NCBI RefSeq assembly: GCF_030538495.1
Contig: NZ_JAUNTW010000010.1
Location: forward strand, 1-64,000
Length of the DNA: 64,000 bases
Direction: 5' to 3'
From: Paracoccus sp. (in: a-proteobacteria)
GTDB lineage: Bacteria; Pseudomonadota; Alphaproteobacteria; Rhodobacterales; Rhodobacteraceae
A program made the translations under genes and the position numbers. Of the stretch, positions 1 through 2,930 are shown piece by piece. Under the pieces are notes generated by a model. The model ran no database searches, was not told the origin of the DNA, and saw only the letters and a program-made list of their open reading frames with translations. Position 1 is the first letter of the stretch, and each line of letters begins with the position of its first letter.

Positions 1-2483
1 GGGTCGATACGGCCATGATCGGCCCGGTGGCTGACCACGGTGCGATCAAGCTGCGCCTTGAGGGCGTCGCGGAATCCGCCCCATGGCGGCGGGATCGAGC
101 CGGCCAGTTCGTCCAGCCCGTTTTCAACATTGGCCTTGGCGATATCGGCGATGCGTTTGACCATGCTTTGATCGGTTGCGCCGATCACGGCGGCGTCGAT
201 CATGTGGTGACGATGATCCTGACGGTTCTTGGCCTTTGACGTGCCGCGATGGGCGTCCGGCAGCAGGCTGTTCAGCTCCCAATGACGGCGCAGCAATTCC
301 GTCAGCTTGCCCGCGACAACCCAGATCGGGCGGCGGCCTTCATGCAGGGCATCGGCATACAGGCTTTCCAGATATTCCCGCGCCAGCCGCGACAGATATT
401 GCGTATCAACCAAGGCGCGGGCGGTGAAATCGCGCGTGCCTTCGAATTTTTCCATGGCATCCGGCTGAAAGCGCCAGCGTTTGCCATCGGGCAGGTTTTT
501 CAGATTGGCCTCGATGATCGACCATTTCGATGTGCCGCCCCACGCCTCCCACGGGGTTTGGTTGCGTTTGTCGCGGTTTGCGGATTTCAGGCAGATGGTG
601 CGATTGTTAAAGCTGTCGTCCAGCGTGCGGGAATAGGGCAGGATGTGGTCGATGTCGCAACTGCCGTCGAACAGCATCGCCGCCGAAATCATCGTGCCGG
701 TATATGGGCAGCAGCGTTTCAGCGCATCGGCCGACGATTCTTCCCAGACCCGCAAAATGGCGCGATTGCGGCCGTTATCTTCGACCTTTAATTCCTCGAT
801 CAGCTTTTGACTGCGCGATTCGGCGGCCTTTTGGTTTTTCGTGTTTTTCTGCGCCAGTTCGCGTTTTTGATCCTCGCTCATCTTCAGATTGCGGGCCAGC
901 TCCAGCACGATCTGATAGGGGCGGCCATAGATGTCGATGATCCGGTTCACCAGCCGCCGGATTTGGCCCAGGCCGATATGCACCGTCGGGTTGGTGATCC
1001 GGCCAAAGCGGGTGACATCGTCATCGCTTTCTTCGCCCGTGCCGGGCAGGACGTGACGGTCAAGGATTTGCCCGTAATAGGGCAGCCGGTCCAGCACCTC
1101 GCCGGTGGCAAGATGCGAATGGTTCCAGCCGCAAAATTCGACGGCCTCGTTATAGGTGGCGACCTCTTGATCCGCCGTGCCGCCAATCAGCGCGGCAAGA
1201 ATGCGGCGGGTGGCGGTTTCGCCAAGGCGCCCGAAGCCTTCGGGCAAGGGGGCGTCGGCGATCGCGCGGGCGCGTTCCCGGTCAAAGCCGGTGCGGTCCA
1301 CCAGCCAGTTCACCAGCTTTTCGCCGTCCTGTTCGTCGCGCAGGTGCTGGATGATCTCCCATTGCTGATCGGGGTTCAGGGTGGACCAGCCGGGACCATA
1401 GCGGTCAGGATGGGCAAGGCTCATCCGAACCGGATCGCAGGCAATCGCATCGCGCATCGCCGTTTCCAGAGAGAAGCTTTCATCCGGGCGCAGCTTGATC
1501 ACCTTTTTCAGCGCAACCAGCGTCAGCTTGTTCGCTCCGGGGCTTTTGGCAGGGGCCTTGCCGTTCAGCGCGGTGATGATCTTGTCGCGCTCCTCGCGGG
1601 TCAGGCGGCGCTTGGGCTGACCGGGCGCGGTGACGCGCAGCATGTTCACGGTCTCATACATCGTTCGCTGTTGGGTCAGCGGATGGGCCTTTGGCAAGCG
1701 GCGTTCAGGCAGGAACAGGCACCGCCCGATGGCGGGGGCTTTCAGTGGGCGCTGATAAAAGATCGTCTCGAAAATCTGGTCGCGCAGCTCCTCGGTCAGT
1801 TCAGGGTGATGCGGGGCCTGCGCCTGCCAGATCTTGTGGAACTCTTCCTCCAGATGGCGGCGGTCGGGATAGAAATCGTAACCCGGCGTTTCTTTACCAT
1901 CCTCGCCGGTCATATGCGGGTTGATGCGCGTGCGGACCGAGGGCACCGCGCGGGCGTCATCCGCACTGGCACGGCGTTTGTGCAGGAACTCGCCATAGCT
2001 GCGCGCGCCCGCCGCCATCATGGCCTGATCCAGCCGGGCCGAGCCATCCGCAATCAACCCGCCTTCGTTGCTGCCCTTGTCCGTGCGGCGGTTCGATTTA
2101 AACCCGCGCCGCTGGTTCAAATGGAACAGGGCGCGGCCCAGATGCGTCAGGGGCAGCGCCTGATCCAGCCCGGAGGCCCGCAGCGCATAGGGATCAAGCG
2201 CGGTCAGCGCCGCCGCTTCATCGGGATTTTGCGGCATCAGTCCGGCTTCAGCCATGCGCTTCATCAGCATGGTCCGGCGGCGCAGATAACGATCACGCCG
2301 CCGCCGCATAGCGCGGGCCGTGCGCCGCCCGACGGCCAGCGACTGCCCGGTCTTGGCTTCGCGCCCATCGCCAGAAATCCGCACGCCGCCGTCGATAATG
2401 CGCGCGGGGCGGCCGTTGACGATCTCGTAGAGGATCCACCCGATGGATGAGGTGCCGACGTCAAGGGCAAGGCGTGTGAGCAT
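1..2483 (-). CDS. cas9: Type II-C Cas9 endonuclease, C-terminus cut by window edge
   Basis: RNA-guided DNA endonuclease, effector of a type II CRISPR-Cas system. The 827 visible residues contain, in order: RuvC-I with the motif ALDVGTSSIGW (Asp8), an Arg-rich bridge helix at about residues 50-75, a helical recognition lobe with the family phrase EEEFHKIW, RuvC-II (IVLELARN, Glu528), an HNH domain with CDIDHILP (Asp612, His613) followed by the N-containing second half, and RuvC-III (RHHMIDAAVIG, Asp763). All nuclease residues are intact, so the enzyme should cut both strands. The REC lobe is short, as in compact II-C proteins. The start ATG is preceded by AAGGA at a good distance. The PAM-interacting domain, and presumably cas1, cas2 and the array, lie beyond position 1. 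The frame stays open to the edge. The adjacent tracrRNA at 2847-2930 supports the call. Confidence 0.96.
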   Translation of the reverse strand, partial: MLTRLALDVGTSSIGWILYEIVNGRPARIIDGGVRISGDGREAKTGQSLAVGRRTARAMRRRRDRYLRRRTMLMKRMAEAGLMPQNPDEAAALTALDPYALRASGLDQALPLTHLGRALFHLNQRRGFKSNRRTDKGSNEGGLIADGSARLDQAMMAAGARSYGEFLHKRRASADDARAVPSVRTRINPHMTGEDGKETPGYDFYPDRRHLEEEFHKIWQAQAPHHPELTEELRDQIFETIFYQRPLKAPAIGRCLFLPERRLPKAHPLTQQRTMYETVNMLRVTAPGQPKRRLTREERDKIITALNGKAPAKSPGANKLTLVALKKVIKLRPDESFSLETAMRDAIACDPVRMSLAHPDRYGPGWSTLNPDQQWEIIQHLRDEQDGEKLVNWLVDRTGFDRERARAIADAPLPEGFGRLGETATRRILAALIGGTADQEVATYNEAVEFCGWNHSHLATGEVLDRLPYYGQILDRHVLPGTGEESDDDVTRFGRITNPTVHIGLGQIRRLVNRIIDIYGRPYQIVLELARNLKMSEDQKRELAQKNTKNQKAAESRSQKLIEELKVEDNGRNRAILRVWEESSADALKRCCPYTGTMISAAMLFDGSCDIDHILPYSRTLDDSFNNRTICLKSANRDKRNQTPWEAWGGTSKWSIIEANLKNLPDGKRWRFQPDAMEKFEGTRDFTARALVDTQYLSRLAREYLESLYADALHEGRRPIWVVAGKLTELLRRHWELNSLLPDAHRGTSKAKNRQDHRHHMIDAAVIGATDQSMVKRIADIAKANVENGLDELAGSIPPPWGGFRDALKAQLDRTVVSHRADHGRID

Positions 2484-2566
2484 GGTCGTGTCCTTATTCT
2501 TGCGATGGTGGTGGCAGGTTAGCGTGGGGTTGGGGTAAATCGATTTGTTTGGGCGTGTTAATTAAA

Positions 2567-2576
2567 TATCATTGAG
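2567..2576 (+). promoter_or_regulatory. Putative self-target in the cas9 upstream region
   Basis: The decamer TATCATTGAG lies 84 bp upstream of the cas9 ATG, inside the most AT-rich stretch of the intergenic region (about 2555-2590), where the leftward cas9 promoter probably sits. The same decamer occurs at 2764-2773, directly abutting a degenerate CRISPR repeat inside the tracrRNA precursor. If that RNA acts as a natural single guide, this site is its protospacer, and the 3' flank GAAATTTT on the + strand would hold the PAM. The PAM of this Cas9 is unknown and no clean -35/-10 pair for cas9 can be assigned, so the regulatory role is inference. Confidence 0.5.
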
Positions 2577-2682
2577 GAAATTTTATTTGCGTGTGCGTGG
2601 TGGCCTTGGCAAGCTTAATTGTTCGTATTTCCTTGGCGGACTGATCCCAGCATGTTCGTGGGGGCTGGCACATGACACGCGG

Positions 2683-2710
2683 TTGCTGGTAAGTGGAGAC
2701 AGGCTAAAGT
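2683..2710 (+). promoter_or_regulatory. Candidate promoter of the long tracrRNA form
   Basis: TTGCTG (2683-2688) and TAAAGT (2705-2710) are separated by 16 bp, a plausible sigma-70-type pair. It would start a rightward transcript near 2717, running through the guide, pseudo-repeat, anti-repeat and terminator. The match is modest and other starts closer to 2764 are possible. Confidence 0.3.
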
Positions 2711-2812
2711 GCGCAACTGAACGAAAATCTCAATGCCTTCCGAGACTTTTTCAGACCCGGCAGTATCATTGAGTTCCCGCTGGACCGCGTTTCATGACGG
2801 CGAATATTGTGC

Positions 2813-2842
2813 TTGACTATGTGGCCAAGCTGCTGGTAAGGC
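2813..2842 (+). promoter_or_regulatory. Candidate promoter of the short tracrRNA
   Basis: TTGACT at 2813-2818 is a strong -35 hexamer. A weak -10 (TAAGGC, 2837-2842) follows after 18 bp. Transcription would begin at about 2848, exactly where the anti-repeat region starts, giving an 80-nt tracrRNA. The promoter lies in the loop between pseudo-repeat and anti-repeat, so long and short forms could be made from nested promoters. Confidence 0.5.
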
Positions 2843-2846
2843 AAAA

Positions 2847-2930
2847 AATATTCAGAAATCGTTGGTCGAGTGGCTAACAAGCTCGACAGAGCACCACATT
2901 AAAACACGGGCTACGGCCCGTGTTTTCATT
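2847..2930 (+). ncRNA. tracrRNA (short form)
   Basis: The segment has the standard tracrRNA order. An anti-repeat (about 2847-2878) is followed by a small nexus-like stem-loop, GCTC-GACA-GAGC (2881-2892), a short linker, and a perfect 11-bp terminator hairpin (2901-2926) ending in a T-run. It lies upstream of and divergent from cas9, a common place for tracrRNA in type II-C loci. The anti-repeat pairs with the degenerate repeat 55-85 bp upstream, which supports its identity even though the true array is outside the window. The RNA would pair with pre-crRNA, allow RNase III processing and anchor crRNA in Cas9. The 5' end is estimated from the promoter at 2813-2842. Confidence 0.82.
2901..2928 (+). 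terminator. Rho-independent terminator of the tracrRNA
   Basis: A perfect 11-bp stem (AAAACACGGGC with GCCCGTGTTTT) with a TACG loop is followed by CATTT. It closes the tracrRNA. Because the stem ends in A/T runs on both sides it could also act on the other strand. Confidence 0.85.

What the first reader, a model, noticed from the sequence alone, without database searches (positions are those of the whole stretch)
2567..2930. Candidate natural single-guide RNA (tracr-L-like) for Cas9 autoregulation in a type II-C locus
Seen: a decamer TATCATTGAG at 2567-2576, upstream of cas9, is repeated at 2764-2773. There it directly abuts a degenerate CRISPR repeat (2773-2792). That repeat pairs by hand with the tracrRNA anti-repeat (2856-2878) over 18 base pairs, plus a perfect 7-bp helix (2802-2808 with 2847-2853), all on the same strand and before the same terminator. 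Known: S. pyogenes tracr-L folds the same way and represses the cas operon with an 11-nt guide too short to allow cleavage. Inferred: this II-C locus has its own version. I estimate a chance 10-bp direct match within this region at a few percent, and its position exactly at the repeat boundary lowers that further.
Basis: partly seen in the sequence, partly recalled or inferred. Interest (0 to 1): 0.93.

Follow-up and report, generated by a model that had tools for sequence, protein, structure and literature searches.

The report
Cas9 system's built-in self-repression guide

Summary
TATCATTGAG occurs only twice in the 2.67-Mb assembly, at 2567 and 2764. Read with the array repeat of relatives, the guide is 11 nt (2762-2772) directly 5' of a degenerate repeat; the target is 2565-2575, followed by GGAAATTT. 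Of 43 relatives' loci with a recognisable tracrRNA core, 29 have a short cas9-tracrRNA gap and 14 a long one. In 9 of the 14 long ones the 11 nt before the degenerate repeat match a cas9-proximal site at 10 or 11 of 11, always on the same strand and followed by NGR. The guides differ between loci but follow their own targets (95 of 99 letters; 1 of 200,000 permutations as good). Two of the nine were new loci, examined after the rule was stated. Five long loci show no match. I read this as a tracr-L-like natural single guide of a type II-C Cas9 that likely represses cas9; the text I could read describes tracr-L as II-A only. Transcription, binding and repression are untested, and the PAM rests on little. 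A conserved leader hairpin with loop GUCCA(C/U)A, in 8 of 14 long loci, is unexplained.

The parts
3..2483 (-). cas9, 5' 827 codons; runs off the contig start
   Evidence: window is G000:C1 from base 1
2565..2575 (+). predicted target (protospacer sense) of the natural guide, AATATCATTGA, 81 nt from the cas9 start
   Evidence: best match to the guide on either strand, 10/11, 4 of 2000 shuffles; coordinates
2576..2583 (+). PAM-side flank GGAAATTT (NGR type)
   Evidence: relatives' protospacer flanks GGAGATCA, GGACATCA, CGGAAAGC, the last a weak hit
2587..2615 (+). candidate promoter of the long tracrRNA (TTGCGT, 17 nt, CAAGCT); weak, by eye
   Evidence: a TTG element follows the PAM in the relatives listed; the consensus scan found no promoter
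2616..2761 (+). predicted leader of the long RNA; a conserved hairpin reaches from 2730 into the guide (to 2772)
   Evidence: 8 of 19 pairs with two-sided changes over 5 loci; position
2762..2772 (+). 11-nt guide AGTATCATTGA
2773..2793 (+). degenerate CRISPR repeat (GTTCCCGCTGGACCGCGTTTC)
   Evidence: 13 of 14 first bases match an array repeat
2802..2808 (+). 5' arm of 7-bp helix closing the single-guide loop (GAATATT)
2813..2841 (+). candidate promoter of the short tracrRNA inside the loop (TTGACT, 17 nt, GTAAGG)
   Evidence: CTTGAC in 9 of the 10 aligned long-gap loci (in L014 shifted by a base or two); -10 read by eye and weak, none by the scan
2847..2853 (+). 3' arm of 7-bp helix (AATATTC)
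2855..2878 (+). tracrRNA anti-repeat
2881..2892 (+). tracrRNA stem after the anti-repeat (nexus-like)
2901..2926 (+). intrinsic terminator

Best explanation
The stretch 2762-2930 is predicted to be transcribed as a long tracrRNA that folds on itself, degenerate repeat with anti-repeat, into a natural single-guide RNA whose 11-nt guide would take the likely type II-C Cas9 to 2565-2575 beside the cas9 start, where it likely represses cas9 without cutting. Shown by sequence: the guide, the repeat-like stem, the target, the NGR flank, and their co-variation in nine loci. Inferred: that a transcript runs from near the target through the guide to the shared terminator; that 11 nt permits binding but not cleavage, as reported for S. 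pyogenes tracr-L; and that the bound complex blocks the cas9 promoter. The candidate promoter of the long RNA starts within about 15 nt of the target, so the complex may also dampen its own guide, closing a feedback loop. The short tracrRNA used for defence would start from a second promoter inside the single-guide loop.
For: Own-genome uniqueness of the 10-mer. In Fuscibacter oryzae (L038) the 11-mer AGTGCTTTTGA occurs exactly twice in the genome, as guide and as target. Shuffle tests per locus: window 4, L035 0, L036 7, L037 14, L038 0, L006 0, L014 3 of 2000; L132 4 and L133 3 of 5000. All nine sites are on the tracrRNA-sense strand, 10-81 nt from the cas9 start, followed by NGR. Own guide-target pairing scores 95 of 99, 1 of 200,000 random permutations as good; within the five Paracoccus/Fuscibacter loci only the true pairing of 120 reaches its score. 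Two of 2 new long-gap loci obeyed the rule (a third, L136, repeats L047). A repeat-like 14-mer of 10 or more of 14 is present in 12 of 14 long loci and 1 of 29 short ones. One spacer of L038 matches two phages with flanks GGAGATCA (E 6e-3) and GGACATCA (E 0.8, homologous gene); 18 of 21 IMG/VR stretches found with that protospacer's pattern also have GGA, not independently. Repeat:anti-repeat z is -2.5 or lower in 9 of 11 loci tested. Operon cas9-cas1-cas2-array in L038 with no room for csn2 or cas4 between.
Against: Five of 14 long-gap loci show no match (L024, L042, L043, L044, L047). Four of the nine pairs have one mismatch, the window's included. No promoter passes the consensus scan. The guide is predicted free in the window's single-guide form (mean unpaired probability 0.93) but mostly paired in five matched relatives: L035 0.25, L036 0.19, L037 0.32, L038 0.12, L014 0.05; with 79 nt of leader the window falls to 0.59 and L038 to 0.06. 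PAM evidence is thin: the CGGAAAGC hit of an L036 spacer is weak (E 0.5), two equally weak hits disagree (Pan4 TGCTGTAG, E 0.8; a Rhizobium phage CTTTCC, E 1), and two of the 21 IMG/VR stretches, from one contig, have GAA. The window's own array and PAM are unknown.
Confidence: 0.84

Rival explanations
1. The two copies are binding sites of an ordinary transcription factor that acts at both the cas9 promoter and the tracrRNA region.
For: The sites share TTGA at their end, and GGAAA follows the target, in the five Paracoccus/Fuscibacter loci.
Against: A factor's site should keep its letters across loci; here letters change together within a locus, and the guides of L006, L014, L132 and L133 agree with the targets of the five at only 3 to 6 of 11 letters. 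The second copy ends at the repeat boundary in the matched loci, which a protein site has no reason to do.
Confidence: 0.05
2. The long RNA exists and guides Cas9 to the site, but the main effect is on the long RNA's own promoter or on Cas9 loading (competition with crRNAs), not on cas9 transcription.
For: A candidate promoter of the long RNA begins right after the PAM, so the target would lie between two divergent starts (by eye).
Against: The target is always at the cas9-proximal end of the gap, 10-81 nt from the start codon; in L006 it touches a TATAAT reading toward cas9 (by eye).
Confidence: 0.08
3. The guide is a relic of a lost CRISPR array or self-derived spacer next to the tracrRNA, matching by descent and no longer used.
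For: L047 has two repeat-like copies 57 bp apart, and L024, L043 and L044 keep a repeat without a matching site.
Against: Unused pairs would drift apart; nine pairs keep 95 of 99 letters while the letters themselves differ between loci.
Confidence: 0.02
4. Chance.
For: A single 10-of-11 match alone would be a weak case.
Confidence: 0.01

Closest known systems
tracr-L of type II-A S. pyogenes (Workman et al. 2021, not seen; described in PMC8616872 and PMC11417352, passages seen)
   Same: Long tracrRNA form acting as a natural single guide; 11-nt match next to a PAM at the cas promoter; a short form as well. The divergent layout is recalled.
   Different: Here the Cas9 is of a II-C family in Rhodobacterales, the flank is NGR type, and a conserved stretch of about 150 nt lies before the guide, whereas PMC8616872 puts the match at the 5' end of tracr-L.
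CreR cas-regulating RNAs (types I-B, I-E, V-A; PMC13131331, passage seen)
   Same: Partial match of an RNA to the cas promoter, autorepression.
   Different: CreR is a separate crRNA-like RNA (recalled); here guide, repeat and tracrRNA lie in one predicted transcript, for a type II effector.
scaRNA of Francisella novicida (type II; PMC8616872, passage seen; subtype II-B recalled)
   Same: Cas9 binds DNA without cutting to repress transcription.
   Different: scaRNA pairs with tracrRNA as a hybrid and represses endogenous genes; here the site is beside cas9 and the guide is joined to the tracrRNA.
RNA mechanisms against extraneous crRNAs in II-C (PMC12080349) and Cas13 systems (PMC13187072); search listings with abstract starts only
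   Same: RNA structure around repeats, II-C in one case.
   Different: By title they concern the extra repeat of the array, not cas9 control by a guide.

Membership tests
tracr-L (natural single guide of type II) | degenerate repeat and anti-repeat on one strand before one terminator, able to pair in cis | tested here: met
   (weak in L042 and L047)
tracr-L (natural single guide of type II) | short guide directly 5' of the repeat matching a cas-promoter-proximal site | tested here: met
   10/11 in the window; 9 of 14 long-gap loci
tracr-L (natural single guide of type II) | PAM next to the target | tested here: inconclusive
   NGR at all nine targets; one fairly good and one weak spacer of relatives agree, two weak hits disagree; own PAM unmeasured
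tracr-L (natural single guide of type II) | separate long and short transcripts from two promoters | tested here: inconclusive
   CTTGAC conserved in the loop; consensus scan found no promoter; no RNA data
tracr-L (natural single guide of type II) | Cas9-bound long RNA represses the cas promoter without cleavage | not testable with these tools
   needs bench work
tracr-L as described so far | belongs to a type II-A system | tested here: not met
   relative L038 has cas9-cas1-cas2-array with no gene for csn2 between; nearest solved Cas9s by sequence are about 1,080-1,095 aa (NmeCas9-like is recalled)
Type II-C CRISPR-Cas | cas9, cas1, cas2 and array without csn2 or cas4 | tested here: met
   in L038, between cas9 and the array; in the window itself only part of cas9 is present
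CreR | stand-alone crRNA-like RNA separate from tracrRNA (recalled) | tested here: not met
   guide-repeat and tracrRNA are contiguous on one strand in the 10 aligned long-gap loci

The most novel reading that the evidence does not exclude
Natural-single-guide autoregulation is an old, repeatedly lost module of type II-C systems in Rhodobacterales. It controls both divergent promoters, and its long leader adds a regulatory layer: hairpins whose loop GGUCCA is complementary to the array repeat's UGGACC, and a hairpin that pairs with the guide itself, would let the RNA sense crRNA supply before it represses cas9.
Probability: 0.15. Interest if true: 0.92.

Novelty: new variant of a known kind. 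Interest (0 to 1): 0.82.

Why it matters
[quoted passage not shown] Co-variation in nine II-C-family loci would make RNA-guided autoregulation of Cas9 a property that crosses subtypes. It supplies ready test pairs in environmental bacteria such as Fuscibacter oryzae. Scattered presence and absence (14 long, 29 short gaps) would let one ask what is gained or lost when Cas9 escapes its own control. Those who use II-C Cas9s as tools would also have natural single guides to copy.

Tried and rejected
Rfam gave no family for the region and, for seven relatives' loci, only one tRNA. Own type II array, cas1 and cas2: not found; the one cas1-bearing frame that the Pfam Cas1 model found in the genome lies on C5 beside an array of another repeat, likely type I-E (recalled from the repeat). 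PAM from phages: arrays of L043, L040 and L046 hit nothing; hits of L048 and one of L038's (Mycobacterium phage Isca, 73%) are weak and were not followed. A viral contigs pattern from the L036 spacer found nothing. Plasmid searches gave low-identity repeat-like hits and hits to a sequence at the array's edge; not followed. Genus searches around L006, L014 and L024 found one genome each, their own. A shuffle test of the 60-nt leader plus guide in 11 loci gave clear excess stability only in L014, so the leader hairpin rests on pair changes alone, on a structure derived from the same five rows. A second reading of L024's repeats, and partial matches in L042 and L043 seen by eye, were not counted. 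Of 63 distinct Cas9 loci in the first set, 29 lacked the tracrRNA core pattern and were not classed; of 13 new ones, 3 lacked it and 1 was a repeat.

Full report
Observation. The decamer TATCATTGAG lies at 2567-2576 and 2764-2773 and nowhere else in the 2,674,772-base assembly. cas9 runs leftward from 2483 and is cut by the contig start. The tracrRNA lies on the opposite strand and ends at the terminator 2901-2926. The genome shares its genus group with G487 and G508, which hold the loci of a Paracoccus MAG (L035) and of P. thiocyanatus (L044); these are Rhodobacterales, Paracoccaceae, as is Fuscibacter.

Register. Relatives found with the Cas9 fragment carry arrays whose repeat, in crRNA sense, begins GTTGCCGCTGGACCGCG or GTTGTCGCTGGACCGCG in the close ones. 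Placed on the window, the repeat starts at 2773, so the guide is the 11 nt 2762-2772 and the target 2565-2575. One letter of 11 differs. The sequence 2762-2930 folds as a single-guide RNA with the guide free, z -4.14.

Two classes of locus. I took the cas9-upstream stretch of 63 distinct loci fetched. A strict tracrRNA core pattern was present in 34: 22 with the core within about 170 nt of cas9 and 12 at 193 nt or more. An order-wide search added 10 with the core: 7 short, 2 long and one repeat of L047. The totals are 43 loci, 29 short and 14 long. These include two viral contigs and one MAG labelled as a planctomycete, all three short. A 14-mer with 10 or more matches to a repeat start occurs in 1 of 29 short loci (L127, 10) and in 12 of 14 long ones; L035 and L044 score 9 and were recognised by position and by the TGGACT core.

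Guide and target. For each of the first 12 long loci I took the 11 nt before the degenerate repeat and looked for its best match anywhere between cas9 and the guide, on both strands, against 2000 dinucleotide shuffles. Hits, with the number of shuffles as good: window 10/11 (4), L035 11/11 (0), L036 10/11 (7), L037 10/11 (14), L038 11/11 (0), L006 11/11 (0), L014 11/11 (3). Misses: L043 8/11 (1087), L044 7/11 (1169), L024 7/11 (1908), L042 7/11 (1958), L047 8/11 (710). The boundary of L042 is my choice by eye and uncertain; in L006 and L014 it was recognised together with the direct repeat, so for these two the register is not blind. The two new long loci then gave 11/11 (L132, 4 of 5000) and 10/11 (L133, 3 of 5000). 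All nine sites are on the same strand and are followed by GGAAA (five), AGGAT, GGGGT, AGGGT or GGGGT. In Fuscibacter oryzae the 11-mer occurs exactly twice in the genome.

Co-variation. Scoring every guide against every target, the true pairing has 95 of 99 identical letters, and one of 200,000 random permutations reached that. For the first seven loci, 1 of 5040 did, the true one. Within the five close loci, letters 4-7 change from locus to locus and the target follows, with one exception in L037, while the flanks TTGA and GGAAA stay fixed. Permuting within these five is the control for shared ancestry: 1 of 120, the true one.

PAM. One spacer of L038 matches two phages with flanks GGAGATCA (E 6e-3) and GGACATCA (E 0.8), and one of L036 a phage with CGGAAAGC (E 0.5). 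Of 21 IMG/VR stretches found with a pattern of the first protospacer, 18 have GGA and one TGA, and two from one contig GAA; the closest (1 mismatch) has GGAGATCG. They are not independent of each other. A Pan4 hit (TGCTGTAG, E 0.8) and a Rhizobium phage hit (CTTTCC, E 1) disagree. NGR is therefore likely, not settled.

Type. In L038 the operon is cas9, cas1, cas2 and the array, with Cas1 and Cas2 best matching type II models and no room for csn2 or cas4 between cas9 and the array. For the other loci the type is inferred from Cas9 kinship.

Folding. In 11 long loci (L044 left out) the repeat:anti-repeat stretch has z from -7.5 to -0.5, at or below -2.5 in 9; L042 and L047 are weak. The guide is free in the window's single-guide form (0.93) but mostly paired in L035, L036, L037, L038 and L014 (0.05-0.32) even without the leader. 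Cas9 binding would have to open it; this counts against an easy loading.

Promoters. CTTGAC stands in the loop of 9 of the 10 aligned long loci, with a poor -10; it would drive the short tracrRNA. Just after the PAM the matched loci have a TTG element that could drive the long form (by eye). In L006 a TATAAT reading toward cas9 touches the target's far end (by eye). The consensus scan found no promoter in the window. So the arrangement, target between two divergent starts, is a proposal.

Leader. If the long RNA starts near the target, about 150 nt precede the guide in the window. A hairpin reaching into the guide shows two-sided changes in 8 of 19 pairs over five loci, 0 of 500 shuffles as high on that measure, and sliding the partners destroys it. 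The structure came from the same rows, and none of the five single sequences folds better than its shuffles by much (lowest z -1.2, L038). Part of it pairs the guide's UUGA with the leader's UCAA. Separately, the motif GUCCA(C/U)A, mostly as a hairpin loop, occurs in 8 of 14 long loci (10 copies in 4,213 bases) against 1 of 29 short ones (2,533 bases); 1000 mononucleotide shuffles of the long stretches give 0.43 copies on average, at most 3. Its stems differ while the loop stays, as RNA would; one of the two L133 copies does not fold so. GGUCCA is complementary to UGGACC of the array repeat. The window itself lacks this loop. I have no tested explanation.

History. On a quick Cas9 tree of 35 rows (L030, L033 and L047 left out for short fragments, L132 and L133 not yet found) the seven matched rows fall in three places (a Paracoccus/Fuscibacter clade, L006 and L014), needing at least 4 changes of that label. 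Losses of an old module or repeated gains both fit. L044, inside the first clade, lacks about 200 nt including the target region, which looks like a loss.

Literature. Eight searches of the held library were made; the word tracr-L is in three papers, none of them on II-C by title or by the passages seen. [quoted passage not shown] PMC11417352 treats II-A, with the 11-nt match and a second pair in S. mutans, and does not hold the term II-C (passages). PMC13131331 lists CreR for I-B, I-E and V-A (passages). The tracrRNA passages of PMC10013973 do not mention a long form. PMC12216829 was seen in listings only. Workman et al. 2021 did not appear and was not seen, so the claim of novelty rests on these.

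Verdict. The finding is real and more than chance. The mechanism is known in kind and new, as far as I could see, for type II-C.

Noticed in passing
leaders of L006, L014, L024 (2), L035, L036, L037, L132, L133 (2): Hairpin loop GUCCA(C/U)A with changing stems, in 8 of 14 long-gap loci and 1 of 29 short-gap ones; the GGUCCA is complementary to UGGACC of the array repeat. Function unknown.
   Followed up: partly
L004 5989-6992 (G000:C5): The same genome holds a second CRISPR array of another repeat near a cas1 frame (likely type I-E, recalled from the repeat), with a block of several spacers present twice.
   Followed up: no
L047 (positions 234 and 291 of its upstream stretch): Two copies of GGTTGCCGCTG, repeat-like, 57 bp apart before the tracrRNA: perhaps the relic of a small array.
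   Followed up: no
L025 and L080 upstream stretches: Exact direct repeats of 31 nt and 20 nt, about 340-370 bp apart and tracr-like, in two more distant loci.
   Followed up: no
L044: Paracoccus thiocyanatus keeps the degenerate repeat but lacks about 200 bp with the target and leader: a likely loss of the module.
   Followed up: partly
L059, L060, L062 (IMG/VR) and L039 (a 'Planctomycetaceae' MAG): cas9 of this family on contigs classed as viral, and on a planctomycete MAG contig that groups with L059 in the Cas9 tree; mis-binning or transfer.
   Followed up: no
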